Below, in pieces: positions 21,545 to 36,040 of a DNA stretch of 64,000 nucleotides. The DNA comes from Pseudomonas frederiksbergensis (GTDB lineage: Bacteria > Pseudomonadota > Gammaproteobacteria > Pseudomonadales > Pseudomonadaceae). Under the pieces are notes generated by a model. The model searched no databases, was not told the origin of the DNA, and saw nothing but the letters and a program-made list of their open reading frames with translations. Made by a program: the position numbers and the translations under genes. Numbering within the stretch: position 1 is the stretch's first letter; every line of letters starts with the position of its first letter. The stretch lies in assembly GCF_035751725.1 (NCBI RefSeq), contig NZ_CP142104.1, positions 5,937,469-6,001,468 on the forward strand, in the 5' to 3' direction.

Positions 21545-22171
21545 TCAGACTTCTGTCTGCAAACCCGCAGCCGTACGCGGCATCCCGACGAAACCAGGCA
21601 GGGCTTCGATCCGCACCAGCCATGCGCGCACATGGGCATAGTCTTGCAGCGAAACATTGCCTTCCGGCGCATGGGCGATGTAGCTATAGCCCGCGATGTC
21701 GGCAATGGTCGGGGTGTCACCCACCAGATAAGGGCTGTTGCCCAGCGCTTGGTCAATGATCTTGAGCAGACTGTGGGAACGGGCGATCACCTCTTCGGCG
21801 TTGGCAGAGGCACCGAACACCGTGATCAGCCGCGCCGTAGCCGGGCCGGCATGCAGTGGTCCGGCGGCTACCGACAGCCAGCGCTGGACGTGAGCGGCGC
21901 CGACCGGATCCGTTGGCAGCCAACGTCCCTGGCCGTATTTGGCTGCCAGGTACACCAGGATCGCGTTGGAGTCAGCCAGCACCACACCATTGTCGTCGAT
22001 GACCGGCACTTGGCCGAATGGGTTGATTGCCAGGAAATCCGCTTGTTTGTGCGCCCCCTTGGCCAGATCGACAAAGCTTATCTCTACAGGCAAATCGAGC
22101 AACGAGAGCATCAGCTGGACACGGTGGGCGTGGCCCGAGAGTGGGAAGTGATAAAGCTTGATCGGGTTCAT
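21545..22171 (-). CDS. glutathione S-transferase family protein
   Basis: A 208-residue soluble protein with an N-terminal thioredoxin-like domain (Met-Asn-Pro-Ile-Lys-Leu-Tyr opening; the Ser-Gly-His-Ala-His-Arg segment carries the likely glutathione-activating Ser; the cis-Pro is in Gln-Val-Pro-Val-Ile; Glu/Asp-Ser follows). The C-terminal part is a helical GST_C domain (Pro-Tyr-Leu-Val-Gly-Asp-x-Pro-Thr-Ile-Ala-Asp). ATG 22171 has GGAG upstream and begins the fold correctly. It follows a LysR gene in the same direction (126 bp gap), which may control it. The substrate is unknown. Confidence 0.88.
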
Positions 22172-22297
22172 GGTCGACTCCGCTGAGAGAGGACGCCATC
22201 GGTAGGACGGCGTCGATGGCGTCATCTTCTGCTCAAGCCCGGATCTATAGAATCACCTGTAGGCGCAATCCATTATTTCCGCTGGCGAAACAATGCA

Positions 22298-23200
22298 TCA
22301 GCCTTTCCAGACTGGGTGTTCTCGCAACGCACTGACCAAGAAGTCGACAAAACTGCGAACCCGCGCCGGCGCATTGCGCCCGCCTTGATAAACGACATGG
22401 ATCGGCAGCCGCGGCAGTTCGAAATCCGCCAGCACGACTTCCAACTCACCGGCTGCAAGGTTGCCGGCCACTTGGTAGGACAGCACTCGCGTCATCCCCA
22501 AGCCTTGGCACGCCGCGGTGATGGCGGCCTGGTTGGCTGTCACCACCAGCCGCGGTGAGGGGCGGACGGACAATGGCTGGCCTGCCTCGACGAAGGTCCA
22601 ATGCTTGACCTGGCCGATTGCTGATGACGACACCACAGGCATTCGCTCAAGGTCCTGCGGGTGCTGCGGCCGACCGTGGCGGGCAAAGAAATCCGGCGAG
22701 CCACACACCACTCGCCGCACCTCGCCGACACGTACGGCGTGCAGGCTGCTGTCGGGCAACTCGCCGATGCGCACGGCAACGTCGATTCCCTCCTCCACCA
22801 TGCTGACGGTGCGATCCAGCAGCAAGGCGTTGACGCAGACCTCGCCATAGCGCTCCAGGAAGTCCACCAACACCGGCGTGACAAACAGTTGTCCGAACAG
22901 CACGGGCGCGGTGATGGTCAGTTGCCCACGCGGTTGGGCGTGACTGCCCGCGGCGGAATCCTCGGCTTCCTGAAGATCACCGAGGATCCGGCGACTGTCC
23001 TCGAGAAAGCGCTGGCCTGCTTCACTCAGGTAGACGTTGCGCGTGGTACGCACCAACAACGGCGTACCGATGCGCTGCTCCAGCGCCGCCACTGCGCGCG
23101 TCACGCTGGCCGCCGACAGCCCCAGGCGTCGCGCAGCCGATGAAAATCCCGACTCCTGGGCCACGGCAACAAACACCTGCATTTCCTGGAACCTGTCCAT
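22298..23200 (-). CDS. LysR family transcriptional regulator
   Basis: A 300-residue LysR protein: winged helix-turn-helix at residues 1-60 (Phe-x3-Ala-x3-Ser-Phe-Ser-x2-Ala-Arg-Arg-Leu, then Ser-x-Thr-Arg-x-Val-x2-Leu-Glu), linker helix, and periplasmic-binding-like effector domain. ATG 23200 follows GGAGGATGG. The type with Met-Asp-Arg-Phe-x-Glu-Met at the start is common in pseudomonads and often lies next to a redox or GST gene. It may control the GST gene downstream; the inducer is not known. Confidence 0.88.
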   Translation of the reverse strand: MDRFQEMQVFVAVAQESGFSSAARRLGLSAASVTRAVAALEQRIGTPLLVRTTRNVYLSEAGQRFLEDSRRILGDLQEAEDSAAGSHAQPRGQLTITAPVLFGQLFVTPVLVDFLERYGEVCVNALLLDRTVSMVEEGIDVAVRIGELPDSSLHAVRVGEVRRVVCGSPDFFARHGRPQHPQDLERMPVVSSSAIGQVKHWTFVEAGQPLSVRPSPRLVVTANQAAITAACQGLGMTRVLSYQVAGNLAAGELEVVLADFELPRLPIHVVYQGGRNAPARVRSFVDFLVSALREHPVWKG

Positions 23201-23440
23201 CCATCCTCCGATGAGAAATCCTGATACAAGTTTTGTGCACGCCGAAAGCCGCGCCGTGGCGCCATTGTAGAGGCGTTGAGCGGCGAACCGCAGCCGGCCG
23301 CCAGATCGTGGGCCAATAATGGCGGCTGGGCTTGGTACCATCCCGCACAGTTTTGTGACCGTTTAATGACCAAACACAGACTCGCTGGCAAGGGGCCAGT
23401 GTTTTTCGATGGTTTGGTTAAAACCGAAAGGCCGTTTTCC

Positions 23441-25654
23441 GTGAATATTGTCCACCGAACCTTGACCCATCCACGCGCGACCCTCGCCGCCCTGGCCGGC
23501 TGCGTGCTGCTGATCCCCATGGGGCTGCGCCTCGCACTGGGCTGGTCCGACCCGCTGGGGTATCTGTCGGATATTGCCATCGGCACCTTGTTGATGATGG
23601 TGCTCTATCGTCGTCCCTGGTGGCTCGCGTTACCTGTATTGCTGGCGTGGTGTGCACTGACGCTCGCCAGCATCGAACTGGTCAGCGCAGTAGGACGGAT
23701 GCCAACCCCTGCGGACATCCAGTACCTGATCGACCCGCAGTTCGTCGAGAACTCCAGCAGCGGCGGCTTCGCTCATCCTTGGGGCGCCGCCGCCACACTG
23801 GCAGCACTGGCGTTCTGCCTAGCCATCCAATGGGTTAATCGAAGCCGCCAGCCGCCGCCCCTGCCACGTCATGCCTGGGCCATGCCCGTAGCGCTTTTGC
23901 TGGTGCATGGCAGCATACAAAGCTGGCGCCCCAGCGAGGCAGACCAGTGGGACCTGTTCAACCTGCCCCACCAGCTCATGACCGCCAGCGTCGCCGCCGG
24001 GCAAGAGCACCTCGAACAATGGCTGTCAGGCGACACGCCGGAACCGGCTCCGCCCATGGAAGGGTTGACGCGCCTGGATCTGGAAGGGCAAAAGCTGCTC
24101 GCCGCGCCGGGCCGTGCGCGCAATGTCCTGATCATCACCCTGGAAGGCATTCCCGGCGCCTACCTGGAGACCAACCGCCAGGCTTTGCAAAGCCGTTACC
24201 AGGAAAACCTGATGCCGCGCCTCAGTAGCTGGGCCGAACGTGGAATGAATACGCCCAACTACGTGTTGCACAGCCACCAGACCATCCGTGGCCTGTACGC
24301 AATGCTGTGCGGTGACTACGACAAACTCGACGATGGCACGCCCAAGGGCGTCGAGATGCTGAACCAGACTCAGCGCAACCAGGCCTGCCTGCCCGCCCAG
24401 TTGCGCAAGAACGGGTTCTCGACTCATTTCCTGCAAGGCGCCGGGCTGCGCTTCATGGCCAAGGACCGGATCATGCCGCACATCGGCTTCGACACGACGT
24501 TGGGCATGGAGTGGTTCACTCGACCGGCTTATCTGGAGTTTCCCTGGGGCAAGGATGACAAGACTTTTTTCGAAGGCGCGCTGGACTATGTCGGGCAACT
24601 GCAACAGACGGACAAGCCATGGATGCTCACCCTGCTGACCGTCGGCACGCACCAACCCTACTCGGCCCCGGACGATTACCTGGAGCGCTACGACACCGCC
24701 AAGCAGGCCGCCGTGGGCTACCTGGACGACGCGCTGGACAACTTCCTCGCGGGCCTCGAACGCCAGGGCATCCTGGAAAACACCTTGGTGGTCATCACCT
24801 CGGATGAATCCCATGGCATCGATGACGTGCGCCTGGCGTCGTCCTGGGGGTTCAACCTGACGCTGGCGCCGGAGCCGTTGCCGACGATCAAGCAAGGGGT
24901 GCATGGCCATGTCGACCTGACCGCTTCGGTGCTCGATTACTTTGGTTTCGAGATACCGATTTCACTGTCCGGCCGCTCGATGTTCAGGCATTACGAGACA
25001 GGTCGGGAAATCATGTCGTTCACCAACGGCAAGCTGCGTTATCACGATGGCAAGGGCACCTTCACCGAATGCGATTTCCTGCAACGTTGCCGTGACTACA
25101 AGAGCGAGGGCTTCATCGCCGACCGTGCCACTTACGCCGGGCAATACGGTGGTCAACGGGCCCGGCTGATTGCCGCACGGGCCACTGCCTTGGACCAAAC
25201 GTTGCTGGCAACGCCCCTTAACCAGCATTACCAATTCGGCAGCAATGAAAAAATCCCGTTGCCCGCCCACGTCTCCAACGATTGGACCGACAACCTGATC
25301 GGCGCCCAATATCTGGAGATGCCCAAGGGCACCCGCACACGCGTAAGCCTGACCATTCGCGCCGTGGATAAAGGCCACGCTGCGTACATTTCCCTCAAGG
25401 CCAAGGAATTCGAACAAGACGTGCCAATGGACTTGCCCACCGATGTGGCGGTGACTAGCGACCAACCGCTGGTGATGGACATCCATTTCGATAATCCGCA
25501 ACCGCGCAAGGCGTTCTCTTTCCACTTGCTGGGCCATGGGGCTGGCGCAATCGAAATCAGCGACTTCAGCGTCGTCACCGAATTGCCCGACCAATCGGAC
25601 CAGCCGGAATACCTGGATGACATGCAGGACGACAGCGAGGCGCAGTCCAGCTGA
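23441..25654 (+). CDS. LTA-synthase-family membrane sulfatase/phosphotransferase
   Basis: About 737 residues: four or five N-terminal transmembrane helices, then an extracytoplasmic alkaline-phosphatase-superfamily domain (metal-binding Thr-Leu-Glu-Gly-Ile-Pro, nucleophile candidate Thr in Ser-His-Gln-Thr-Ile-Arg-Gly, and Thr-Ser-Asp-Glu-Ser-His-Gly). A beta-rich C-terminal domain with an acidic tail follows. In Gram-negatives such proteins modify periplasmic glycans or lipids (for example OpgB-like phosphoglycerol transfer); here the acceptor is unknown. The start is uncertain: GTG 23441 has GAAAGG upstream, ATG 23366 would add 25 residues but lacks a ribosome site. Confidence 0.8.
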   Translation: MNIVHRTLTHPRATLAALAGCVLLIPMGLRLALGWSDPLGYLSDIAIGTLLMMVLYRRPWWLALPVLLAWCALTLASIELVSAVGRMPTPADIQYLIDPQFVENSSSGGFAHPWGAAATLAALAFCLAIQWVNRSRQPPPLPRHAWAMPVALLLVHGSIQSWRPSEADQWDLFNLPHQLMTASVAAGQEHLEQWLSGDTPEPAPPMEGLTRLDLEGQKLLAAPGRARNVLIITLEGIPGAYLETNRQALQSRYQENLMPRLSSWAERGMNTPNYVLHSHQTIRGLYAMLCGDYDKLDDGTPKGVEMLNQTQRNQACLPAQLRKNGFSTHFLQGAGLRFMAKDRIMPHIGFDTTLGMEWFTRPAYLEFPWGKDDKTFFEGALDYVGQLQQTDKPWMLTLLTVGTHQPYSAPDDYLERYDTAKQAAVGYLDDALDNFLAGLERQGILENTLVVITSDESHGIDDVRLASSWGFNLTLAPEPLPTIKQGVHGHVDLTASVLDYFGFEIPISLSGRSMFRHYETGREIMSFTNGKLRYHDGKGTFTECDFLQRCRDYKSEGFIADRATYAGQYGGQRARLIAARATALDQTLLATPLNQHYQFGSNEKIPLPAHVSNDWTDNLIGAQYLEMPKGTRTRVSLTIRAVDKGHAAYISLKAKEFEQDVPMDLPTDVAVTSDQPLVMDIHFDNPQPRKAFSFHLLGHGAGAIEISDFSVVTELPDQSDQPEYLDDMQDDSEAQSS

Positions 25655-25660
25655 AAGCAA

Positions 25661-25692
25661 AAACGCGCAGCCGCTGGGGCGGTTGCGCGTTT
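25661..25692. terminator. strong bidirectional terminator
   Basis: A 14-bp stem (AAACGCGCAGCCGC / GCGGTTGCGCGTTT, one G-U pair) with a TGGG loop. It lies between the convergent sulfatase and Asd-like genes, with A/T tracts on the two outer sides. Confidence 0.85.
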
Positions 25693-25715
25693 GGTTCACT
25701 CGATGCCTGGTTCGA

Positions 25716-26705
25716 TCAATCGCTGACCAACTGCATGATTTCGAAGGCGTTCAACGCCGCCCCACGCAGCAATTGGTCGCCGCTGATAAACAGGTCCAGT
25801 CCGTTTTCGCCGTAGATCAGGTTGTAGCGAATCCGGCCAACCTCGACCGCATGTTTGTACGTCGACGTCATGGGCATCGGATAAACGCCCTGCTTGGGTT
25901 CGTCCACCACTTCGACGCCCGGCGCCGCGGCAAGCAGTTCGCGCACCTGGGCCAGCGACTGGACCGGTTTCCTGAATCGCAGGCTCAGGCTCTCGGCGTG
26001 AGAACGCAGGGTCGGCACCCGCACCGCCGTGGTGCTGATGGCCAGCTCCGGTTCGCCCAGGACCTTGCGCAACTCCCAGACCACTTTCATCTCTTCGCGG
26101 GTGTAACCGTTGTCTTCGAACGAATCGACTTGGGGAATGACGTTGAACGCCAGGTTATGGGCAAAGTTCTCGCTGCCGTCTTCATCACCATAATCGCCGA
26201 ACGCCTTGGCCTTTTCCCGCAGCTCCAGCATGGCGGGCTGCCCCGCGCCACTGGCGGCCTGATAGGTGGAAATGATCGCGCTTTCGAGCCCGAAGGTGTC
26301 GTGCAGCGGCCCAAGCACCATCAGCGCAATGGCCGAGGAGCAGTTGGGGTTGGCGATCAGTTTTTCGCCCTTGTAGCGCTGACCATTGATCGGCGGTACC
26401 AGAAGCGGAATGTCCGGGTGATAACGGAAAGCCGATGAGTTATCGATAACGTATGAGTTTTCAGCCAGGCGCTCGCCATATTCCAAGGCAAACGATCCGG
26501 AAACGCACAGGAAGACGATATCGCACGAAGCGCAGCCTTCGACCGAAAACGGCTCGATCAGGTGCTCGGTGTTACCAGCCTTCAAGCGCTTGCCGGCCGA
26601 ACGCTCAGAGGCCATGCAGACCACTTCGTAGTCGGTGTCTTCAAGCAATTGCAGCATGGTCATGCCCACTGCACCGGTGCAACCCACCACGGCGACTTTC
26701 TTCAT
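25716..26705 (-). CDS. aspartate-semialdehyde dehydrogenase-like, cluster copy
   Basis: A 329-residue protein of the Asd fold. It has the NADP loop Gly-Cys-Thr-Gly-Ala-Val-Gly at residues 8-14, the acylation Cys122 in Asn-Pro-Asn-Cys-Ser-Ser, Gln149 in Thr-Tyr-Gln-Ala-Ala-Ser-Gly-Ala-Gly and the base His236 in Arg-Ser-His-Ala-Glu. At 329 residues it is of the shorter type, not the 370-residue enzyme used by pseudomonads for lysine/threonine synthesis. It is the last gene after the halogenase, HDO and RarD genes. It may supply aspartate semialdehyde for lysine, or reduce or oxidise a modified amino-acid semialdehyde; both are inference. Confidence 0.85.
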   Translation of the reverse strand: MKKVAVVGCTGAVGMTMLQLLEDTDYEVVCMASERSAGKRLKAGNTEHLIEPFSVEGCASCDIVFLCVSGSFALEYGERLAENSYVIDNSSAFRYHPDIPLLVPPINGQRYKGEKLIANPNCSSAIALMVLGPLHDTFGLESAIISTYQAASGAGQPAMLELREKAKAFGDYGDEDGSENFAHNLAFNVIPQVDSFEDNGYTREEMKVVWELRKVLGEPELAISTTAVRVPTLRSHAESLSLRFRKPVQSLAQVRELLAAAPGVEVVDEPKQGVYPMPMTSTYKHAVEVGRIRYNLIYGENGLDLFISGDQLLRGAALNAFEIMQLVSD

Positions 26706-26728
26706 TTCGATTCCCTTATCCTGAATTA

Positions 26729-26754
26729 CCCGCGCCGCCTGCAGGCGGCGCGGG
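26729..26754. other. perfect 26-bp GC palindrome between rarD and asd-like gene
   Basis: CCCGCGCCGCCTG/CAGGCGGCGCGGG, an uninterrupted inverted repeat, lies in the 57-bp gap. There is no T-tract, so it is more likely an RNA processing or attenuation hairpin than a classic terminator. Confidence 0.6.
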
Positions 26755-26762
26755 CGGGTATG

Positions 26763-27692
26763 TCATGCCGTACGCATTTGCACGGACAACCTGGCGGCTG
26801 CCGCTGCACGCTGGACCCGAATGGAATTCAACGTGAACAACGCAAGCGCCAGCCAGATGAACGAGAACGCCGCCAGTTTCAACGACGAGACCGGTTCACC
26901 GTAAACGAACGCCGCCAACAGGAAATTGCAAATTGGCGGGACAAATTGCAAGAAGCCCAGCGTGATCATCGACAACTGCTTGGCCGCCAGACTGTACCAC
27001 CACAACGGCAGCACCGTGATCAGGCCCGTCGCGATCAGCAACAGGTCGCGGGTACCCGATTGCAGGAACTGATGCCCTACGCCCTGGGCTTGGGCCAGCA
27101 CCAGGAACAGCGCCGCAAATGGCAGCAGTACGGCAATTTCCAAGGTCTGGATGACCACCGGATCGCCGGGGACCTTTTTCTTGAAGATGCCATAGAAGGA
27201 ATAGCAGAAGCCGATGACCAGTGCGATCCATGGGAATGAATGCAGGTTCAGCAACTCGAATGCCATCAACGTCACACCGGTGACGGCCAGGAATATCGCC
27301 CAGGTCTGCAATGACGTGAGGCGCTCCTTGAAGATGACCCGCGAGACCACCATGCTCATGATGGGGCTGAGGAAATAGCCGAAAGCCACCTCCAACACGC
27401 GTCCGGTCATGATCCCGTAGATGTACATCAGCCACCACAGCCCGAGGACCGCCGACACCGTCAGCACGTTCACCGGGCGAACCGTCTTGAGCGTAGAACG
27501 CAACGTTCCTACCCGGGCGGTCAACAACACCAGCGCCAGGAGAAACAGCTCGGCAAAGACGACGCGCCAGGACAGCAGATGGTAGGCATCGAGCCCTGCG
27601 AGGGGCTTGTACCAGAGAGGGTACGAGCCCCAGAGCAGCGTGGCGCCGAGCCCGAAGGCCACGCCTTGTCCGGATTCATTCTTGGCGGTCAT
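26763..27692 (-). CDS. rarD: RarD-type EamA/DMT transporter
   Basis: A 309-residue inner-membrane protein with ten predicted helices and two EamA halves (Trp-Arg-Val-Val-Phe-Ala-Glu near residue 45; Phe-Gly-Tyr-Phe-Leu-Ser-Pro typical of RarD). DMT transporters often export amino acids and related metabolites. Its ATG overlaps the stop of the HDO gene by 4 bases (ATGA), tying it to that enzyme, so export of the cluster product or uptake of its precursor is a reasonable guess. Family call is firm, substrate unknown. The symbol is the family name and does not imply chloramphenicol resistance. Confidence 0.85.
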   Translation of the reverse strand: MTAKNESGQGVAFGLGATLLWGSYPLWYKPLAGLDAYHLLSWRVVFAELFLLALVLLTARVGTLRSTLKTVRPVNVLTVSAVLGLWWLMYIYGIMTGRVLEVAFGYFLSPIMSMVVSRVIFKERLTSLQTWAIFLAVTGVTLMAFELLNLHSFPWIALVIGFCYSFYGIFKKKVPGDPVVIQTLEIAVLLPFAALFLVLAQAQGVGHQFLQSGTRDLLLIATGLITVLPLWWYSLAAKQLSMITLGFLQFVPPICNFLLAAFVYGEPVSSLKLAAFSFIWLALALFTLNSIRVQRAAAAARLSVQMRTA

Positions 27693-28435
27693 TGACGTCC
27701 TCCAGCGTTGAGTTTGCGCTCGATACCGTCCCAGTACACTTCCATCAGGTGCAGGTACTGTTCGATGCCTTCGGCGAACAGACGGCGCTCTTGCGGCGTT
27801 TGCAGGTGTTTTTCCATAACATTGAACACGGCGTTGGAATGCCCGACTTCGACTTCCATGTGCAGCGTCCAGAAGAACCGTCCACGTTCGCCGACGCCTT
27901 CCTTGATGAGGCCATCGTTGTATTTGGAAACCATCGAGGCCGACATCGCCTCGTCGGCGAACAGGCCGCCCAGGGCTTTTTGCAGCGGCGGCTTGCTGTA
28001 GAGCGCGCAGATACCGTCATTCAACGCCTGGGTGCTCGGCAGACATTTGTAGGCTTCGATCTGCTCTTCGCTGATGCCCTTGTCGTGCAGGAACTTGCGA
28101 TACAGGTCGGAGTGAGAATGGGTTTCGCCCAGCTCGTCACGGGCGTTGAACGCGATGGTGCGCAACACCGCCTCGTCACGGGTAATGGTGGAAATGCCAC
28201 AGACATAGAACGGCAGATACTTGAAGTAATGCAGGGTTTCCAAGTACAGCACCTTGCTTTGCTCCGGCGGCAGGCCGTGCTCGGCGTAGGCGTTGAGAAA
28301 TGGGTGTTCGGTCGCCCGATGCTTGAGGATGTAGTCGATCTGCTCATCCATGAACGACTGGAGTTCCAGGTCGACACCTTCGTTGCGCACGACGTAAGCG
28401 GTTTCGGATTGAAAGGTTTCTTGGGTAATGGACAT
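27689..28435 (-). CDS. haem-oxygenase-like diiron oxidase (HDO; BesC-like candidate)
   Basis: A 248-residue all-helical protein of the TenA/HDO fold. A full diiron ligand set can be placed: Glu101 and His108 (Asp-Glu-Leu-Gly-Glu-Thr-His-Ser-His), Glu162, and His192/Glu196/His199 (His-Met-Glu-Val-Glu-Val-Gly-His). The spacings of 7, 61, 30, 4 and 3 are close to those I recall for CADD (7, 61, 32, 4, 3). HDOs such as BesC, UndA and SznF cleave or N-oxygenate amino or fatty acids. It follows the HxG halogenase gene, the arrangement of BesD and BesC, where BesC splits chlorolysine to a chloro-allylglycine. Substrate here is inferred, not shown. Confidence 0.85.
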   Translation of the reverse strand: MSITQETFQSETAYVVRNEGVDLELQSFMDEQIDYILKHRATEHPFLNAYAEHGLPPEQSKVLYLETLHYFKYLPFYVCGISTITRDEAVLRTIAFNARDELGETHSHSDLYRKFLHDKGISEEQIEAYKCLPSTQALNDGICALYSKPPLQKALGGLFADEAMSASMVSKYNDGLIKEGVGERGRFFWTLHMEVEVGHSNAVFNVMEKHLQTPQERRLFAEGIEQYLHLMEVYWDGIERKLNAGGRQ

Positions 28436-28483
28436 GGCCTGCTTCCTTGAGCCCCGGGGGCAACGTTGATTTTCAAATATGAA

Positions 28484-28509
28484 GCCGGGCGGACAGCCAT
28501 CCGCCCGGC
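28484..28509. other. 10-bp stem hairpin between halogenase and HDO genes
   Basis: GCCGGGCGGA-CAGCCA-TCCGCCCGGC, a perfect stem in the 84-bp gap, with ATATTTG on the minus-strand 3' side. It may cause partial termination or protect the upstream halogenase mRNA. Confidence 0.6.
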
Positions 28510-28519
28510 CGATTTGCCG

Positions 28520-29314
28520 TCAGGCTTCTTCGGCAGACCGGGCCTTGGTGTCCCAGATCACTTCGATGCTTTCGTGGGCAACGTCGGTTCGCCGGTCATG
28601 GGCGCTGGCCCAGCAGGTATTGAGGATGATCCGAGTGGTTTCCTGCTGGATCGGCACGACGTGGTGCAACGTGGTATCGGACTTGAGGAAATACACATCG
28701 CCCTTCAGGTGGTGGTAGGACTTGATCGGGTTGTTGAGGATGTACTGCCAGATCTGCGGGTTCTGCTTGTCCCACTCGCTGTGAGGCACGCATTGCAGCA
28801 CGCCGCCGATCGCAGGGTCCTCGGGCGCTTCGATGATCCAGATCATGGTGTAGGGGTAATCGCCCCAATGCCAGCCGTGGGTATCGCCCGGATGGCTCAG
28901 CTTGGTGATCAGGTATTGCTCTTGCTCCCAGCAGGACGCCAGGTCATCGCCAGCGATGTTGCCGAGAAAATTACGCAGCGACTCGGATTGGTAGAGCGCC
29001 GGAATGAACGTCCCGCCTTCGGCAATCTCAGGTTGGTTGACGTTGTACATCTTGCGGTAAGTATTACCGGTGGACGGAACAGTAACATCGCGACGTACCG
29101 AATATTCATCCAACAGCGCATGAACTTCGCTGTGAACGTTTTCCAGAATCCTTTTTGGCAGGAAGGAAAAGTTCTTGAAGTTGAAATAACCATCGCGGCG
29201 AAATTCATTACGAATCTGCTTCATCCGGTTTTCATCTTGCAAAATAGCCTGGAAGTGCTTGGCCAGTTGTTGCTCCATTACTTCGATGACCAAGCTGGAT
29301 GTTTGTTCGCTCAT
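28520..29314 (-). CDS. Fe(II)/2-oxoglutarate radical halogenase, BesD/HalA family
   Basis: A 264-residue cupin-fold enzyme. The iron site reads His149-Trp150-Gly151, with glycine where hydroxylases have Asp/Glu; the open site lets chloride bind iron and marks radical halogenases. The distal His is 217 and the 2-oxoglutarate Arg is 228. The His-His spacing (68) is near that of BesD (137/204 as I recall). Glu132, Asp152 and Asn232 sit where BesD residues bind free lysine. BesD relatives in P. fluorescens and P. kilonensis (HalA) chlorinate free lysine. ATG 29314 has GGAG upstream. A chlorinated lysine product is likely; the position of chlorine is not predictable here. Confidence 0.85.
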   Translation of the reverse strand: MSEQTSSLVIEVMEQQLAKHFQAILQDENRMKQIRNEFRRDGYFNFKNFSFLPKRILENVHSEVHALLDEYSVRRDVTVPSTGNTYRKMYNVNQPEIAEGGTFIPALYQSESLRNFLGNIAGDDLASCWEQEQYLITKLSHPGDTHGWHWGDYPYTMIWIIEAPEDPAIGGVLQCVPHSEWDKQNPQIWQYILNNPIKSYHHLKGDVYFLKSDTTLHHVVPIQQETTRIILNTCWASAHDRRTDVAHESIEVIWDTKARSAEEA

Positions 29315-29346
29315 TTATCGCTCCATTCCATTGTTATCGGTCGGTG

Positions 29347-30597
29347 TTACAAATCCGTGGGGGGCGACACTCGCGCGATTAACGGAGTGCCTGTGGGGAT
29401 GACTTTCTTGTTATGCAGATTCATCAGCGGGCCGGTCATCAGCGTGGTGACGATGGTCATCACCACCAGGGCGGTAAACAGCTCGCTGCCGATAATGCCC
29501 ATGTCCAGGCCGATCTTGAGCACGACCAGTTCCATCAGCCCGCGGGTATTCATCAGGGCCCCGACGGTCAGGGAATTGGACCAGGAGCATCCCACCAGCC
29601 TTGCGCCCAGGGCGCTACCGGCCACTTTGCCGGTGACAGCCACCAGCAGGATCACCAGCAACACCCAGACGCCAAGGCCCGAGAAAGCCGAAGACGTGGT
29701 GCTCAAGCCTGCGAGGGCAAAGAAACAAGGCATCAATATGATCAGCGACACGTGTTCCAACCGTTCGATGATCATGTCCAGCAAGCGCTGGTCCCGGGGC
29801 AAGCACAGGCCGAACAGGAAAGCACCGAACACAGCGTGTACTTGCAGAGCGTCGGTCAGGCTGCCGTAGATCATCACACCGGCCAGCAGCGCCACCAGCA
29901 CCATGGGTTGCGCGAGTTTTCCTTCAGCGGCAAGCCAGCGGGCCAGCAACGGTTTGAGCACCAGCAAGGAAAAGACCACCAGCGACAACAGGCACGCGCC
30001 TCGCAAGAACAGGGCCATCCAGTTGTCGTCCTGGCCATTCACCATGGCCACGGCCGCTATCAGCATCCACGCCACCACATCGCTCATGGCGGCGGCCAGC
30101 AAGGCAATCGCACCGGTTTGTGTACCGAGCATGCCTCGCTCCTTGAGAATCCGCGCCAGTACCGGGAAAGCGGTCACGGAGAACACCGTGCCGATGAACA
30201 GGACGAAACCCAACCGAGAGGTCCCGGGCATGGCGAAGTGCTCGAACAGCCAAGGGGCCATCGCGGCGCCGAGAGAAAAAGGGATAACGATGCTGAACGC
30301 GCCGATGACCATGGCCTTGAAGCCCGTCTTGCTCTGCTTGAGAGGAAACCGAAACTCCGCACCAATGACGAACATGAACAACAAGATGCCCAGCTCGCTC
30401 AATACTTTCAGCTGTGTAACGGCAGTGCTGTCAAATAACTGTTGATGAAAGGTGGGGAATAGCTGACCGAGTACAACCGGCCCCAACACAAAACCGGCTA
30501 TCATTTCGCCAACTACCTGAGGCTGCCCCAAGCGATTGAATACCGCCCCCAGGAGTTTTGCTGACAACATCACAAACAATATCTGGATCAGCAACAT
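29347..30597 (-). CDS. CPA2 cation/proton antiporter (Kef/Na_H_Exchanger)
   Basis: A 416-residue membrane protein with about twelve hydrophobic segments and the Na/H exchanger fold (Gly-Glu-Met-Ile-Ala-Gly-Phe-x-Leu-Gly-Pro early, Asp-Val-Val-Ala-Trp in the core, Thr-Arg-Gly-Leu-x-Glu near the end). No TrkA-N or cytosolic regulatory domain follows, unlike KefB/C. ATG 30597 (Met-Leu-Leu-Ile-Gln) with AAGGGAATGG upstream is preferred over an extension of 32 codons. It is first of the cluster, 32 bp before the halogenase gene. It may exchange a cation for protons or could handle ions tied to the pathway; biosynthetic clusters of this family do carry such antiporters, but the role here is open. 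Confidence 0.82.
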   Translation of the reverse strand: MLLIQILFVMLSAKLLGAVFNRLGQPQVVGEMIAGFVLGPVVLGQLFPTFHQQLFDSTAVTQLKVLSELGILLFMFVIGAEFRFPLKQSKTGFKAMVIGAFSIVIPFSLGAAMAPWLFEHFAMPGTSRLGFVLFIGTVFSVTAFPVLARILKERGMLGTQTGAIALLAAAMSDVVAWMLIAAVAMVNGQDDNWMALFLRGACLLSLVVFSLLVLKPLLARWLAAEGKLAQPMVLVALLAGVMIYGSLTDALQVHAVFGAFLFGLCLPRDQRLLDMIIERLEHVSLIILMPCFFALAGLSTTSSAFSGLGVWVLLVILLVAVTGKVAGSALGARLVGCSWSNSLTVGALMNTRGLMELVVLKIGLDMGIIGSELFTALVVMTIVTTLMTGPLMNLHNKKVIPTGTPLIARVSPPTDL

Positions 30598-30924
30598 ATT
30601 CCATTCCCTTACAACGTCCAGGTTAATCCGGGTACAACTGACAACTCCTCGACACCGCCGATATCCGTTGGCAGCGCCCTTAACAGAACTCAATCAGATG
30701 CGCACACTCGCGCAGCTCGAACTCATCGAACTTCTGTAGAAGCAGGAATAAATCTGGAAGTGACAATCCTCTACCGGTGCGATGGGGTGGGTTACCGGTA
30801 ACGCGACAGTCACCTTTGTGGGGCGCAGCCGTCTTGGTTTCCTGATTGCCTGGCAGCGATTGTAGGGACATGGGAACGTCCGCTACAGTGCAGCAGACGA
30901 CAATAAACGGTGAATTTACGCCAA
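30598..30924. other. 327-bp divergent intergenic region
   Basis: It separates the halogenase-cluster operon (leftward) from the FtrA-like regulator gene (rightward) and must hold both promoters. Apart from the 12-bp palindrome at 30791 I see no gene or terminator. Confidence 0.6.
30791..30802. promoter_or_regulatory. perfect palindrome, candidate operator
   Basis: GTTACCGGTAAC is a perfect 12-bp palindrome, with a further ACCGGT 18 bp to its left. It sits 122 bp before the regulator ATG and about 190 bp before the antiporter ATG, a suitable place for control of the cluster. The binding protein is unknown. Confidence 0.35.
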
Positions 30925-31920
30925 ATGCACGCTCATCCCGGAACAGTGGCAATCCTTGTTTATGAGGGCCTTTGCGTATTCGAGTTTGGTATCGCCCTGG
31001 AGATCTTCGGCCTGCCCCGCCCAGAACTGGACGTGCCTTGGTACACCCATCGCATCGTCGCGGTCGACCAAGGCCCGATGCATGCGTTGGGTGGCCTGCA
31101 GATTCGCGTCGATGCCGGCCTGGAGGCGCTTGAAACCGCGCAGACCATCATCGTTCCCGGCTGGCGCAGTCGCTATGAGCCGCCTCCCGAGGCATTGCTC
31201 CAAGCGCTCAGGCGAGCTCACGCTCGCGGGGCACGCTTGCTGTCGATCTGCTCGGGGGTCTTCGTACTCGCCGCAACGGGGCTGCTCGACGGCCAGACCG
31301 TGACCACCCATTGGCAATTCTCACAAGAGTTGGCCGAGCGGTTCCCCAGCATCAAAGTCGACCCCAACGTGCTCTACGTCGACCTGGGGCAGCTGATCAC
31401 CTCAGCCGGCAGCGCCGCCGGCATCGACGCCTGCCTGCATCTGATCGCCCGGGATTTCGGCACGCACATCGCCAATTCGGTGGCGCGGCGCCTGGTCATG
31501 GCGCCACAACGAACCGGCGGGCAATCGCAATTCATCGTCGCTCCCGTGTGCAAGTCGCCGCGCAACGAACTGACGCGCGTGTTGCAATGGATTCGCGAAA
31601 ACCTCGATCAACCGTTGAGCGTGGCCGACATGGCCGCTCGCGTGGCCATGAGCGAGCGCACGTTTTTGCGGCGTTTCGTTGAAACCACCGGGCTGCCACC
31701 CAAAGTCTGGCTGCAACAGGAACGGCTGAACCGTGCGAGGGAACTGCTGGAAAGCACGGACCAGAACACCGCTGGGATCGCACAAGCCTGTGGCTACCGG
31801 TCAGTGGAAAGCTTTCGAGCTGCCTTCCGCAACGCAGTGGGCCTGGCTCCCTCCGCCTATCGTGAAAGGTTCGGCAGCGGCGAGATCAGCAAACAAGCTG
31901 CCTGGATCGCCAACTGCTGA
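30925..31920 (+). CDS. GlxA/FtrA-type AraC-family regulator
   Basis: A 331-residue regulator with an N-terminal DJ-1/PfpI-like domain (residues 5-190; Glu-Gly-Leu-Cys-Val-Phe-Glu-Phe near the start and Cys-Ser-Gly-Val-Phe-Val-Leu-Ala at the nucleophile elbow) and a C-terminal AraC HTH (about 220-320). Such FtrA/GlxA proteins control amino-acid-derivative metabolism in pseudomonads (for example betaine and carnitine regulators). ATG 30925 is chosen; a GTG at 30910 would add five residues. It is divergent from the halogenase cluster and is the natural candidate for its regulator, though no target site is proven. Confidence 0.85.
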   Translation: MHAHPGTVAILVYEGLCVFEFGIALEIFGLPRPELDVPWYTHRIVAVDQGPMHALGGLQIRVDAGLEALETAQTIIVPGWRSRYEPPPEALLQALRRAHARGARLLSICSGVFVLAATGLLDGQTVTTHWQFSQELAERFPSIKVDPNVLYVDLGQLITSAGSAAGIDACLHLIARDFGTHIANSVARRLVMAPQRTGGQSQFIVAPVCKSPRNELTRVLQWIRENLDQPLSVADMAARVAMSERTFLRRFVETTGLPPKVWLQQERLNRARELLESTDQNTAGIAQACGYRSVESFRAAFRNAVGLAPSAYRERFGSGEISKQAAWIANC

Positions 31921-31929
31921 AGCCCGTCG

Positions 31930-32526
31930 TCAATCCAGCAACCGATGCAGCTTGGCGTACTGCAACAGCATGATGGTCTTGCCGTCACAAATCTCCCCCG
32001 CCTCGATCATGCCCAGTGCCTGGTCGAGCGGCAGCTCCAACACTTCGATCTCTTCACCCTCGTCCTCAAGGCCCCCGCCTTCGTGCTGCTTGTCTTCATC
32101 GAAGTATTCACCGACAAAGAAATGGATCCGCTCGGTCACCGATCCCGGGCTCATGAACGCTTCGAAGACCTTGCGCACGTCCTGGACGACATAGCCGGTT
32201 TCTTCCTGGGTTTCCTTGCGGATGCAGGTCTGCGGGTCGTCGTTGTCCAGCAGGCCGGCGCAGGTTTCGATCAGCAGGCCGTCGTGCCCATTGACGAAGG
32301 CCGGGAAGCGGAATTGCCGAGTCAACACCACCGTTTGCTTGGCCTTGCTGTACAGCAGGATGGTGGCGCCGTTGCCGCGGTCGTAGGTTTCGCGCGTCAG
32401 CTCGCGCCATTGGCCGTTTCGGCCGAGATAGTCATAGGTCGTCTTGCGCAGGATGTACCAATTATCCGAGAGCACTTCGACGTGCTTGATGCGTACACGA
32501 TCCTTGATGCCGATTGCCTGTGTCAT
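31930..32526 (-). CDS. nudK: Nudix GDP-mannose pyrophosphatase NudK
   Basis: A 198-residue Nudix hydrolase very similar to E. coli NudK from memory: [12 protein letters not shown] near residues 48-59, and Nudix box from Gly91 to Arg-Lys-Glu-Thr-Gln-Glu-Glu-Thr-Gly (103-111). The first acidic position of the box is Asp97 instead of Glu. It cleaves GDP-mannose to GMP and mannose-1-phosphate in E. coli. ATG 32526 begins the homologous part. It converges with the regulator gene (9 bp) and lies 40 bp after nadE, in the same direction. Confidence 0.85.
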
Positions 32527-32566
32527 TTGCCACTCCGTTCGAGGCCAAAGGTCCCATTGAAATCTA

Positions 32567-33400
32567 TTACAACAATACCGGCACGCGGGGCAACGCTCGT
32601 TTGTGGGCCGTCTTGAGGTAGGCGCGTTCAATGATCTGTTGCGCCTGCGGCGACACCTCTTCGCCCATCAGGTACGCATCGATCTCCTCGTAGCTGCAGC
32701 CATACGCCACTTCATCCAACTTACCGGGCGCCAGGTCTTCCAAATCGGCGGTCGGTGCCTTGCGCACCAGATGCGCGGGGGCGCCCATCGCGTCGGCCAA
32801 CCATCTCACCTGGGTCTTGGTCAGCCCGGACAGCGGTGCCAAGTCACACGCGCCGTCGCCGAACTTGGTGAAGAAACCCATCACTGCTTCCGCCCCATGA
32901 TCGGTTCCCACCACCAATCCGTTGCTCAGATTGGCAATGGCATATTGCGCCAGCATCCGCGCCCGGGCCTTGGCGTTGCCTTTGGCAAAGTCGATGAGTT
33001 CGGCCGAGGGCTGCAAGCCATCGATGGCGATGCTGTCCATCAGCCCGTCAACACACGCGGCGATGTTGCTGGTGGTGATCAAGTCCGGCCGGATGAAGTC
33101 CAGGGAAGCCTGGGCATCCTGTTCGTCGGCCTGGGCCTTGTACGGCAGCCGGACGGCAATAAATCGCGCTGCGTAACCTTCCTCTCGCAGTTGCTCCACC
33201 GCCAATTGGCACAGGCGACCGGCGGTAAGCGAGTCGACGCCGCCACTGATCCCCAGCACCAAGGACTGGCAGCCCGACTCACGCAAGGTCTGCTTGATGA
33301 ATTCAATGCGGCGGGCAATCGCCAAGGCCTCGCCACCCTGGTTGAGTTGACGGTCGATGCCCAGCTCTCGGGCGATGCGTTCTTGCGCAAGCGAAGTCAT
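32567..33400 (-). CDS. nadE: NH3-dependent NAD+ synthetase
   Basis: A 277-residue protein of the short ammonia-dependent type (no glutaminase domain). The ATP-pyrophosphatase P-loop SGGVDS is at residues 52-57, and Gly-Thr-Asp-His-Gly-Ala-Glu and Lys-Phe-Gly-Asp-Gly-Ala-Cys-Asp follow as in the E. coli enzyme. It amidates nicotinic acid adenine dinucleotide to NAD+, the last step of the salvage route encoded here. It starts one base after the pncB stop and is third in pncA-pncB-nadE. Confidence 0.93.
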
Positions 33401-33401
33401 A

Positions 33402-34631
33402 TCAGGCTCCCAATTGTGGATTGATCAGGGCAACGTTGAATACTTGGGCGGCATACCGCAGGAACGAGGCATCCTCGCAGACGTTCTTGATCGGATCGTC
33501 GGAGAACTTCACGACCGGTTCGCCGTGGACCCGCACCAGCTTCATGACGATGCTCAGCGGTTCGACGCCGTCGACATCGCAGGCCAGGCTGGTGCCCATG
33601 CCAAAACCGAACTTCGCTTTGCCACGGACATGACGCAGGATCGGCAGGCATTTTTCGAAATTCAGGCCATCGGAGAACATCAAGTCCTTGGTCCGCGCAT
33701 CGACGCCCAACTCCTTGTAGCGCCCCAGCACTTTGTCAGCCCAGGCGATGGGGTCACCTGAATCCTGGCGCAGGCCGTCATAGAGCTTGGCGAAGTACAG
33801 GTCGAAATCCTTGAGGAAAAAGTCGGTGCTGATGCAGTCGGTCAAGGCGATACCGAGGCGGCCGCGATACTCACGTACCCAGTTTTCCAACGCCGCGTTC
33901 TGGCTCTCGCGCAAGCGCCCGAGTTGCTGGTGCACCATCAGCCATTGGTGAGCCATGGTGCCGATCAGCGGCAGATCGAACTCGTAAGCCAGGTGAGCGT
34001 TACTGGTGCCGACAAAGACCCCAGGGAAATCGCTGCGCATGACATTCACCACTTCACGCTGGGCCCTGAACGACAGCCGCCGCCGGGTGGAGAAATCTGA
34101 AACGCGAAACTCGGCGAGTTCTTCACGGCTGGCATTCTTCTCCAGCCATTCGAATTTCTGGTACAGCTTGCGGGTGACGTCGGCCAACTCGACTTCGGGG
34201 TATTTCTCACGGTTGCGCAGTTCGCTGACCATCGCCAATACCGGTTGCTCGAACATGATGCAGTGCAGCATCGGCCCACGGACGCGGATGTGCAGTTGGC
34301 CGTCGACTTCCGAAACGTGGATGTAGCGCAAATTGAAGCGAAACAAGCCGAGAAACTGTTCGAAGTCCGGCGTCAGGTACTCACGGAAACGCTTGTTGAA
34401 CAAAAACCGCTGCTCTCCCTCGCGCAGCTGCAACCCGGCGAGCTTCTCCAATTCGACACGAATGTCCGGAATCAGGTGACCGAGCCGCTCCTTGGAACGC
34501 ACGATGAACTGATATTCCACCTCGACATTCGGGTGCTGGTGCAAGACCGCCTGCATCATGGTGAAGGTGTAGTAATCGGTATCCAGAAGGCTCTGGATGG
34601 TGCCGCTGTTTGTATCGAATGCACTGTCCAT
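33402..34631 (-). CDS. pncB: nicotinate phosphoribosyltransferase
   Basis: A 409-residue enzyme, the usual length, converting nicotinate and PRPP to nicotinate mononucleotide. Typical segments are the N-terminal Leu-Leu-Asp-Thr-Asp-Tyr-Tyr, Gly-Thr-Ser-Asn-Ala in the middle, Ser-Gly-Asp-like Asp-Ser-Gly-Asp-Pro and Phe-Ser-Asp-Gly-Leu-Asn-Phe near residues 325-335, and the catalytic His in the central His-Gln-Trp region. It lies between pncA (9 bp) and nadE (1 bp) in one operon that starts at the NrtR-type operators. Confidence 0.93.
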
Positions 34632-34640
34632 GTCTGTTCC

Positions 34641-35288
34641 CTATGCGTTTGCCTGGCGGAGGGTTTCTTCACGTGTCGCGGCAACCGCGACGCCCGCTTG
34701 CTGCATGTCGGCAATGGCTTGGATGGCCCCCTCCTCGCTGATGGCTCGGCAGGCCGGGAGGTGAATGATCACCCTGAAGCCAGCAGCCGCCAGTTGCAGG
34801 GCGGTGGTCTTGACGCAGAAGTCCAACGCCAGCCCGCCGACAATGACCTGCTCCACAGCCTGGCCTTTGAGGTACTCGATCACCCCGGTGGACAGCTTGC
34901 CGTGCAGGTCGTGGTAGCAGGCGCCGTACGGGTGCAGATCCGGCTCGACACCCTTCCAGACGAAATAGTCGTAGTCGTACGGGGTCGGTAGCTGATCCAG
35001 CAGGGCGAAGCCTTCGGTGCCGGGAACGCAGTGGCTGACCCAGGTAATGTCGGCGTGCTCGAGCCCAGTCGGCACGAACATCTGTGTGTGATCGGCGACC
35101 ACCCACGGGGCCAGGGGCGAATGAGCGTCCTTGCTGCCAATGCGGAGGCTGGCCAGGGAGGCGATGAAATTCAGCTCACCGGCAATCTGGTCACCGCCCG
35201 GCACTGGAAGCTCATCAGGGCACAGCGGCGTGAAGCTCTTTTGCGCATCGACATCGAAGGAAGCGGTTTTCCGGGTCAGGCTGTTCAT
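34641..35288 (-). CDS. pncA: nicotinamidase
   Basis: A 215-residue isochorismatase-fold enzyme that turns nicotinamide into nicotinate. The catalytic triad can be placed: Asp14 (Phe-Asp-Val-Asp-Ala-Gln), Lys112 (Val-Trp-Lys-Gly) and Cys158 (Leu-Asp-Phe-Cys-Val-Lys). Metal ligands are likely Asp54, His56 and His86 (Trp-Val-Ser-His-Cys-Val-Pro-Gly-Thr). ATG 35288 has GAGGAG upstream; the frame extends 17 codons further without support. It is the first gene of the salvage operon, transcribed from a promoter overlapped by the operator at 35318-35334. Confidence 0.92.
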   Translation of the reverse strand: MNSLTRKTASFDVDAQKSFTPLCPDELPVPGGDQIAGELNFIASLASLRIGSKDAHSPLAPWVVADHTQMFVPTGLEHADITWVSHCVPGTEGFALLDQLPTPYDYDYFVWKGVEPDLHPYGACYHDLHGKLSTGVIEYLKGQAVEQVIVGGLALDFCVKTTALQLAAAGFRVIIHLPACRAISEEGAIQAIADMQQAGVAVAATREETLRQANA

Positions 35289-35317
35289 GCTGGGTTTCTC
35301 CTCTTCATGGTCACGAG

Positions 35318-35334
35318 AGTACATAAGGTGTACT
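35318..35334. promoter_or_regulatory. NrtR operator 1 (pncA side)
   Basis: AGTACA-TAAGG-TGTACT is a perfect 6+6 dyad with a 5-bp spacer, 30 bp before pncA. The same architecture recurs at 35450, and the two face the two divergent operons. Confidence 0.75.
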
Positions 35335-35449
35335 TTCATAACAAGCCATTTTCAGAAATTATTTCTGATGAGCCATTGATGCGCCATTAATGCTTAGTTC
35401 TAATAAATCAGCACGAAGCATATTTTCATCAAAAAAATTTTGCTGATAG

Positions 35450-35466
35450 AGTACACGTCATGTACC
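35450..35466. promoter_or_regulatory. NrtR operator 2 (nadD2 side)
   Basis: AGTACA-CGTCA-TGTACC, the same half sites and spacer as operator 1 with one outer mismatch, 17 bp before nadD2. The centres of the two are 132 bp apart. Confidence 0.72.
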
Positions 35467-35482
35467 GAAAGAGGATGAAGCG

Positions 35483-36040
35483 ATGTTCGAGATTGCCCTT
35501 TATGGTGGCGCCTTCAATCCCCCTCACGCCGGTCACGCCCAGGTGATGATCGAGGCCTCACGCCAGGCCAGGCGCGTGCTGGTGGCCCCCAGCTTCCGGC
35601 ATCCCTACGGCAAGCAAATGGTCGACTATGACGTTCGCCTGAACTGGCTGGAATCGATCGTCGAGAACGTCCAGCCACTGTGCTGCGCCGAAGTGCGTGC
35701 GAGCCGGGTGGAGCAGGTCGTCGCCCGTGGCGTCGAAGGCGCCATCTACAGCTACACCCTGCTCGCTCACCTCGCCGACAGCCTGGCCCTGGACGGCAAG
35801 CGGATCGCGTTGGTGGTGGGCCAGGATGTCGCGGATCTGTTGCCGACGTTCTATCGCGGCCAGGAATTGCTGGAGCGGTTTTCCATCCTTCGCGTGGAGG
35901 AAAAGATCCACGTGCGCAGTACGGTGGTTCGCGAACGACTGGCGTTGGGCGAGCCGCTGCCCATCGACTGGATGGCACCCGGCATGAACCCGTTAAACTA
36001 TGGCCTTTACGCTACCCACGGAAATCGACATGCCCACTAG
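35483..36040 (+). CDS. nadD2: nicotinate-nucleotide adenylyltransferase NadD2
   Basis: A 185-residue nucleotidyltransferase. The HIGH-type loop Gly-Gly-Ala-Phe-Asn-Pro-Pro-His-Ala-Gly-His is at residues 8-18 and the SxxxxR-like Val-Arg-Ser-Thr-Val-Val-Arg at 144-150. It should adenylate nicotinate mononucleotide to deamido-NAD, the step between PncB and NadE, so the locus encodes a complete nicotinamide-to-NAD+ path. A housekeeping nadD is expected elsewhere, and the order nrtR-nadD2-pncA-pncB-nadE is that of P. aeruginosa PA4916-PA4920 as I recall. It overlaps nrtR by 11 bases. Confidence 0.85.
   Translation: MFEIALYGGAFNPPHAGHAQVMIEASRQARRVLVAPSFRHPYGKQMVDYDVRLNWLESIVENVQPLCCAEVRASRVEQVVARGVEGAIYSYTLLAHLADSLALDGKRIALVVGQDVADLLPTFYRGQELLERFSILRVEEKIHVRSTVVRERLALGEPLPIDWMAPGMNPLNYGLYATHGNRHAH

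What the first reader, a model, noticed from the sequence alone, without database searches (positions are those of the whole stretch)
25716..30597. Halogenase-HDO-exporter cluster: candidate pathway to an undescribed chlorinated amino acid
Seen: five same-strand genes with short gaps or overlaps: CPA2 antiporter, HxG-type Fe/2-oxoglutarate enzyme, haem-oxygenase-like diiron oxidase, RarD exporter (4-bp overlap), Asd-like dehydrogenase. Known: BesD/HalA enzymes chlorinate free lysine and BesC cleaves chlorolysine to a chloro-allylglycine. Inference: this locus makes and exports a chlorinated, perhaps unsaturated, amino acid. BesA/BesB/BesE-type partners are absent and an Asd-like enzyme is present, so the end product differs from the known beta-ethynylserine path.
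Basis: partly seen in the sequence, partly recalled or inferred. Interest (0 to 1): 0.88.

Follow-up and report, generated by a model that had tools for sequence, protein, structure and literature searches.

The report
Ornithine-chlorinating operon with spare aspartate enzyme
A Pseudomonas carries a five-gene operon that probably chlorinates the amino acid ornithine, trims it to a small reactive amino acid and exports it, and such operons seem to have taken up a spare copy of an essential aspartate-pathway enzyme from more than one source, which hints at what the product attacks.

Summary
In detail: five same-strand genes at 25716-30597, in the order given, with the 4-bp HDO/RarD overlap. The halogenase is not a new lysine halogenase: it matches the crystallised "Halogenase D" (PDB 7u6h) at 259 of 264 residues, and PkHalD is reported to act on ornithine. 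The HDO is a BesC relative with the diiron ligands kept.

The new result concerns Asd. The order halogenase-HDO-RarD-Asd is kept in Pseudomonas and Marinobacter (54/48/40/38-40% identity). The 9 Asd-bearing halogenase rows lie in one clade of 13 that excludes three lysine halogenases of known structure; none of 48 other rows has an Asd in the stretch held. Yet the Asd comes from two far-apart lineages (one clade rejected, p-AU 8.5e-54), keeps its conserved active-site residues, and is extra to a complete gamma-type Asd in 5 of 5 genomes checked. It was recruited twice, or recruited once and later swapped.

Best reading: ornithine to 4-chloro-ornithine to a four-carbon chloro-vinylglycine (2-amino-4-chloro-3-butenoate), exported, with Asd as a protective isozyme. 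Ornithine chlorination is well supported; the HDO product and the Asd role are inference. New variant of a known kind.

The parts
29347..30597 (-). CPA2-type cation/proton antiporter, 416 aa, only the Na_H_Exchanger domain found; first gene of the operon in Pseudomonas, no match beside the Marinobacter clusters
28520..29314 (-). HalD-type Fe(II)/2-oxoglutarate amino acid halogenase, 264 aa; H149-x-G151 and H217/218
   Evidence: 259/264 identical to PDB 7u6h 'Halogenase D' (5 mismatches read off the alignment); Pfam PF23169; trees
27689..28435 (-). haem-oxygenase-like diiron oxidase, BesC relative; E101, H108, E162, H192, E196, H199 kept (that these are the iron ligands is recalled)
   Evidence: PDB 7twa BesC E 1.2e-63; NF042919 241 bits, cut-off 500 not met; conserved columns
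26763..27692 (-). RarD/EamA transporter, probable exporter; start overlaps HDO stop by 4 bases (ATGA)
   Evidence: TIGR00688 over cut-off, NF011959 not, PF00892
25716..26705 (-). extra aspartate-semialdehyde dehydrogenase (asd_B type), C122, Q149, R229, H236 kept
30925..31920 (+). divergent FtrA-like AraC regulator, likely regulator of the operon (ORF listed from GTG 30910; ATG 30925 fits the conserved upstream block better)
   Evidence: NF006902 over cut-off; beside the cluster in 6 of 6 other Pseudomonas loci (L002-L006, L079)
30857..30890 (-). promoter-like block ACTGTAGC...CCTACAATC upstream of the operon (TACAAT at 30864-30859)
   Evidence: conserved in 6 Pseudomonas loci; the sigma-70 consensus scan did not report it
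30908..30924 (-). partly conserved TTGGCGTAAATTCACCG block, possible AraC-type operator
   Evidence: inference only

Best explanation
The operon makes and exports a small chlorinated amino acid from ornithine. (1) HalD chlorinates free L-ornithine at C4 (near-identical enzyme characterised; C4 recalled). (2) The BesC-type HDO uses O2 to cleave the terminal C-C bond of 4-chloro-ornithine, releasing formaldehyde and ammonia and leaving a four-carbon amino acid, 2-amino-4-chloro-3-butenoate (a chloro-vinylglycine); inferred by carrying the BesC reaction over to a chain one carbon shorter. (3) RarD, in Pseudomonas perhaps with the CPA2 antiporter, exports it; inferred. (4) The product, or a keto acid made from it, resembles aspartate semialdehyde in size and enol shape and harms the aspartate pathway; the operon's asd_B enzyme is a less sensitive isozyme that keeps the pathway running beside the host's gamma-type Asd; inferred. 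(5) The divergent FtrA-like AraC regulator switches the operon on; inferred.
For: Halogenase 259/264 identical to HalD 7u6h; PkHalD acts on ornithine (PMC8407142 passage). HDO keeps E101, H108, E162, H192, E196, H199 in at least 97% of 91 rows and is 45% identical over 225 aa to the HDO beside the S. cattleya halogenase. HAL-HDO-RarD-ASD order in L002-L006, L009, L010 and L079. All 9 ASD rows (window and L002 identical) in one halogenase clade of 13 (98/89), 3 lysine halogenases outside; none of the other 48 rows with ASD in the stretch held. Asd in two lineages: 14 linkage-checked rows as one clade rejected, lnL difference 167, p-AU 8.5e-54. Extra to a complete asd_gamma in 5 of 5 cluster genomes; no cluster-type Asd in 3 of 3 lone-halogenase genomes. 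12 pairs of ASD and HDO database hits share the exact contig length, no equal pair inside either list (80 of the 120 listed ASD rows, 82 of 82 HDO rows). Vinyl sulfones inactivate a fungal ASADH, by the authors' proposal through its cysteine (PMC12060211 passages).
Against: No product has been seen. BesC-type cleavage of ornithine derivatives is not shown in anything I read. The HDO alignment shows only conservative differences (V/I, L/V, L/M) between Asd-linked and Asd-free HDOs, so its substrate is not predicted; the two Asd-linked HDO groups join only weakly (79). A C3 radical beside C4-Cl could lose chlorine instead of cleaving C-C. A vinyl chloride is a weak electrophile for a cysteine enzyme; the Asd could serve supply instead. 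Seven residues mark Asd lineage A, none of them a conserved active-site position, so no resistance signature is visible there.
Confidence: 0.38

Rival explanations
1. Asd is a supply gene: the operon draws on the aspartate pathway (for example lysine as the true in-vivo substrate, or aspartate semialdehyde itself as a reactant), and the extra dehydrogenase raises flux.
For: The conserved active-site residues are kept in at least 97% of the Asd rows, so normal ASADH chemistry is probably kept; it is the second step of lysine synthesis (established biochemistry).
Against: The halogenase is a HalD, reported to use ornithine, and ornithine does not come from the aspartate pathway. Halogenases in the part of the tree that holds the lysine enzymes have no Asd in the stretch held, nor has the S. 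cattleya pair within 9 kb; the substrates of most of those are unknown. No aspartokinase or DapA is in the operon.
Confidence: 0.2
2. Chlorination is cryptic: HDO or a later spontaneous step removes the chlorine, giving 3,4-dehydro-ornithine or ethynylglycine-like products rather than a chlorinated end product.
For: In the bes pathway the chlorine is a leaving group for the alkyne-forming step (PMC10187165 passage); a radical next to C-Cl eliminates chlorine readily (general chemistry).
Against: No PLP elimination enzyme like BesB is in the operon.
Confidence: 0.2
3. Asd is a tailoring enzyme that oxidises or reduces an aldehyde or acyl phosphate formed from the HDO product.
For: It sits last in the operon and ASADH-like enzymes act on acyl phosphates and aldehydes. 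The Marinobacter-type Asd has 12 lineage-specific columns, some of them next to the conserved E204-E205-x-K207 motif (window M206 is E, V209 is R), so some change of function there is possible.
Against: Both lineages keep the conserved residues C122, Q149, R229, H236, E205, K207, which fits unchanged ASADH function; no kinase is present to make an acyl phosphate.
Confidence: 0.14
4. The genes are neighbours by chance or hitch-hiking and Asd is unrelated to the halogenase product.
For: Asd genes are very widespread and transferable.
Against: Present in 9 of 9 HAL-HDO-RarD loci found, in two bacterial families, absent from 3 of 3 lone-halogenase genomes, and drawn from two lineages.
Confidence: 0.05

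Closest known systems
HalD (PDB 7u6h), radical amino acid halogenase, ornithine
   Same: 259 of 264 residues, motif, length
   Different: Nothing of note in the enzyme; the operon context is what is examined here
bes pathway of Streptomyces cattleya (BesD, BesC, BesB, BesA, BesE)
   Same: Halogenase followed by a BesC-type HDO; 44% (206 aa) and 45% (225 aa) identity to the pair on the S. cattleya plasmid record, which carries no annotation there
   Different: Ornithine- not lysine-type halogenase; no BesA/B/E-type gene; RarD, CPA2 and Asd added, none of which has a match within 9 kb of the S. cattleya pair
Other Pseudomonas halogenase operons (glyoxalase, DUF3291, another HDO, ATP-grasp ligase, CPA2, EamA; or SHMT-like enzyme plus LysE)
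   Same: BesD-family halogenase, exporter, sometimes CPA2
   Different: Different halogenase clades and partner enzymes; no Asd in the stretch held
Rhizocticin and its self-resistance in Bacillus subtilis
   Same: A beta,gamma-unsaturated amino acid that hits threonine synthase in the aspartate-family pathway (passages of PMC12060211, PMC11867202, PMC13302981); the self-resistance paper was seen only as a title in a reference list, that it rests on a threonine synthase copy is recalled
   Different: Phosphonate peptide and a later enzyme of the pathway; here target and resistance are inferred

Membership tests
HalD halogenases (Pfam PF23169) | profile match over the curated cut-off | tested here: met
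   282.6 bits against 26
HalD halogenases (Pfam PF23169) | HxG instead of HxD facial triad | tested here: met
   H149-W150-G151
HalD halogenases (Pfam PF23169) | chlorination of ornithine | not testable with these tools
   inherited from a 98% identical crystallised enzyme and the PkHalD statement in PMC8407142
BesD lysine 4-chlorinase (NF042920) | equivalog score | tested here: not met
   218.8 bits, cut-off 450; on the other side of a 95/88 branch from BesD, HalB, 9oer
BesC 4-chloro-allylglycine synthase (NF042919) | equivalog score | tested here: not met
   240.8 bits, cut-off 500
Haem-oxygenase-like diiron oxidases, BesC-like | diiron ligand set and homology to BesC | tested here: met
   ligand roles recalled
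bes (beta-ethynylserine) pathway | BesB PLP enzyme, BesA ligase, BesE hydroxylase beside BesD and BesC | tested here: not met
   none among the seven proteins scanned (operon, regulator, sulfatase)
RarD transporter | equivalog score | tested here: inconclusive
   TIGR00688 143.5 over 130.15; NF011959 165.8 under 540
Aspartate-semialdehyde dehydrogenase | family score and conserved active-site residues | tested here: met
   PRK14874 331.6 against 223; C122, Q149, R229, H236 and others kept in at least 97% of the rows of an 81-row alignment. TIGR01296 318.9 is just under its 324.2
Self-resistance target duplicate | extra copy of a housekeeping enzyme inside the operon, host copy also present | tested here: met
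   5 of 5 cluster genomes searched
Self-resistance target duplicate | extra copy resists the product, host copy does not | not testable with these tools
   needs enzyme assays

The most novel reading that the evidence does not exclude
The operon makes the first natural halo-vinylglycine (2-amino-4-chloro-3-butenoate, by BesC-type cleavage of 4-chloro-ornithine), an antimetabolite that hits aspartate-semialdehyde dehydrogenase or the enzymes around it, with the asd_B gene as self-resistance recruited twice. I saw no natural product aimed at ASADH in searches (no paper; 15 of 156 papers listed).
Probability: 0.25. Interest if true: 0.85.

Novelty: new variant of a known kind. Interest (0 to 1): 0.6.

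Why it matters
If right, it gives a biological context to HalD, an enzyme of known structure; extends BesC chemistry to a shorter chain; and uses repeated recruitment of one essential enzyme to name a likely target. A held paper states that the aspartate pathway is not found in mammals and that no commercial antimicrobial targets ASADH (PMC12060211 passage). The claim is testable with a few genes in laboratory E. coli.

Tried and rejected
Rejected: the lysine/BesD reading of the halogenase; Asd as a decayed enzyme; a tRNA in the window or a known RNA family at 22000-36000 (none found); plasmid carriage of the close type (35 plasmid records, all under 60% identity).

Led nowhere: columns separating Asd-linked from Asd-free HDOs, only conservative changes; sigma-70 scan, 0 sites against 1.7 expected by chance; terminator scan, 7 against 5.3 expected; wide genome samples for the HDO, 1 of 398 in the phylum and 2 of 390 in the order, own genome counted in both. 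An empty-site comparison was begun and not carried through. Papers on HalD, BesC and strained amino acids are not held, so C4 as the chlorination site of HalD is recalled.

Limits: the A and M Asd groups were named after the first tree and come from searches started with each type; 'housekeeping' for the other rows goes by names and position, not by context. One search dropped five rows (P0068, P0069, P0223, P0224, P0226) that grouped with the presumed housekeeping enzymes. One search used 14 rows: the window, 9 rows linked by equal contig length to an HDO hit (of the 12 such pairs), P0008 (species of L004), P0203 and P0208 (those of L009, L010) and P0222 (equal contig length). Contig lengths were compared for 80 of 120 listed Asd rows and 27 of 120. 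One search left out 8 long-branch halogenase rows, used a simpler model and warned of long branches; the 13-row clade has 94 without a star. 'No Asd' and 'no HDO' mean no tblastn match in the stretch held: flanks of at most 8 kb, several contigs shorter (L018 and L023 under 4 kb), and four rows (L067, L068, L070, L074) with only short flanks. The ATP-grasp type operons have their own distant HDO.
Full report
What is there. The window is the last 64 kb of a 6.0 Mb contig of a genome whose close relatives are Pseudomonas. Five genes lie on the minus strand from 30597 down to 25716: CPA2 antiporter, halogenase, HDO, RarD, Asd, with gaps of 32, 84, -4 and 57 bases. A divergent FtrA-like AraC regulator starts at about 30925. 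Downstream is a convergent sulfatase-family gene, weakly LtaS-like. The same operon, 100% identical in protein, is in Pseudomonas frederiksbergensis SI8 (L002).

The halogenase. phmmer against PDB sequences gives 7u6h, 'Halogenase D', 612 bits over the whole length with 5 mismatches in 264. HalB (239 bits), BesD (190), another lysine halogenase 9oer (164) and a lysine hydroxylase 7jsd (141) follow. The motif is HWG, so it is built as a halogenase. A held review says that PkHalD works on ornithine (PMC8407142, passage); that 7u6h is this enzyme is my inference, and C4 as the site is recalled from the 2023 PNAS paper, which is not held. In a tree of 52 rows (49 from loci and the window, 3 PDB references; 8 long-branch rows left out) all 9 Asd-bearing halogenases and 4 lone halogenases form one clade (98/89), with BesD, HalB and 9oer on the other side of a 95/88 branch. 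The tree program warned of long branches; in the first tree of 57 rows the same clade had 94 without a star.

The HDO. BesC (7twa) is the best PDB match, E 1.2e-63; the BesC equivalog cut-off is not met, 241 against 500 bits. E101, H108, E162, H192, E196 and H199 are kept in at least 97% of 91 rows. BesC fragments 4-chloro-lysine and lysine (PMC10187165 passage). A review gives the products as 4-chloro-allylglycine, ammonia and formaldehyde and writes the cleaved bond as C4-C5 (PMC13108848 passage); those products need the loss of C6, so I take it as C5-C6. By analogy 4-chloro-ornithine would lose C5 and leave 2-amino-4-chloro-3-butenoate. That step is inference.

The neighbourhood test. A pattern-based scan of the 84,980-species collection gave 53 halogenase loci. 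The order HAL-HDO-RarD-ASD is in L002-L006 and in two Marinobacter (L009, L010), the latter at 54, 48, 40-41 and 38-40% identity to the window, and in one more Pseudomonas (L079). No CPA2 or FtrA match lies beside the Marinobacter genes. Eight loci (seven cyanobacteria, one gammaproteobacterial MAG) have HAL-HDO without Asd; the S. cattleya pair has no match to Asd, RarD or CPA2 within 9 kb. In the 57-row tree none of the 48 other rows has an Asd in the stretch held. Four Pseudomonas loci (L007, L008, L081, L082) have a lone halogenase, 57-62% identical, at the same chromosomal site beside the same sulfatase and, directly or some 6 kb away, the same Nudix gene. Where shown (L007, L008, L082), HSEWD is changed to HSNGN or YSNGN while HWG and TLHH are kept; that this stretch is part of the substrate lid is recalled.

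The Asd. It is a third ASADH-family gene in the genome; the other two, a gamma-type Asd and its neighbour, are 29-35% identical to it. In a tree of 81 Asd rows the Pseudomonas-type and the Marinobacter/Vibrio-type cluster Asd lie in different parts among presumed housekeeping enzymes. Holding 46 rows of both types as one clade costs 167 log-likelihood units, p-AU 3.5e-113; with 14 rows whose link to an HDO was checked, 166.8 units, p-AU 8.5e-54. C122, Q149, R229, H236, E205, K207, R94 and N121 are kept in at least 97% of the rows (that these are active-site residues is recalled). Seven columns mark the Pseudomonas-type lineage and 12 the Marinobacter type; some of the latter sit next to E205 and K207. 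So ASADH was recruited twice, or once and then swapped, beside the same halogenase type. The HDO tree puts Asd-linked HDOs in two groups (98 and 100) that join only weakly (79), and the Asd-free HDOs in another (98).

How it probably works. Ornithine chlorination is well supported. HDO cleavage to a chloro-vinylglycine is the most likely next step by analogy. Export by RarD fits the family. For Asd, protection is favoured over supply because ornithine is not made from aspartate and because halogenase clades around the lysine enzymes lack Asd where seen; over tailoring because both lineages kept the conserved residues. Precedents: vinyl sulfones inactivate a fungal ASADH, by the authors' proposal through its cysteine (PMC12060211, passages); the unsaturated amino acid of rhizocticin hits threonine synthase, and a paper on its self-resistance appears by title in a reference list (PMC13302981); synthetic 3-chlorovinylglycines inactivate alanine racemase (PMC9293202, passages), which is another possible target. 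The weak reactivity of a vinyl chloride speaks against direct attack on Asd; a keto acid made from it would be more reactive.

Rarity. In a sample of the genus 4 of 298 genomes have a HalD-type halogenase over 80% identical, own genome included, and 3 have the lone type, of 17 with any match. HDO searches found 2 of 390 in the order (query L009) and 1 of 398 in the phylum (query window), own genome included.

Literature. Searches on BesD, BesC, HalD with ornithine, 4-chloro-ornithine, chlorovinylglycine, 2-amino-4-chloro-3-butenoate, and ASADH with self-resistance and gene cluster (one search was swamped by the surname Hald and tells nothing) listed no paper whose title or abstract describes this operon or product. 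One search listed four papers, of which passages of one were read. The library lacks the main HalD papers, so prior description cannot be excluded.

Noticed in passing
L007, L008, L080, L081, L082 (halogenase 57-62% identical to HalD): Lone HalD-like halogenases at the same chromosomal site, without BesC-like HDO, RarD and Asd, with a changed HSEWD stretch but HWG and TLHH kept where shown: halogenases of unknown substrate or a remnant that has changed role (L080 is the same locus as L007).
   Followed up: partly
window 31930-36737: NAD-salvage neighbourhood next to the operon: Nudix, NAD synthase, nicotinate phosphoribosyltransferase, isochorismatase-type, cytidylyltransferase-type and a weak NrtR-like regulator match under its cut-off.
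   Followed up: partly
L014, L020, L022, L025, L026, L027, L028, L034, L052: Another Pseudomonas halogenase operon: glyoxalase-fold, DUF3291 (not seen in L027), a distant HDO, ATP-grasp ligase, CPA2, EamA (families named from L014 alone): CPA2 plus EamA recur with different halogenase types.
   Followed up: partly
L024, L033, L035-L040, L042-L044, L048, L050, L051: Halogenase beside an SHMT-like PLP enzyme and a LysE-type exporter in Pseudomonas, Paraburkholderia and Legionella species (families named from L024 and L036).
   Followed up: no
L009 11840-12304, L010: Marinobacter clusters show two ORFs of 153 and 154 aa right after Asd; the second is a GNAT acetyltransferase in L009, a possible second protection gene.
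   Followed up: partly
window 28483-28510 (-): Strong 12-pair G+C-rich hairpin just after the halogenase stop codon, before HDO; may tune expression inside the operon (number of such sites in the region not above chance).
   Followed up: no
31 of the rows P0153-P0187 (tree): A group of 31 HDOs, 53-66% identical to the window's, whose halogenase and Asd context is unknown.
   Followed up: no
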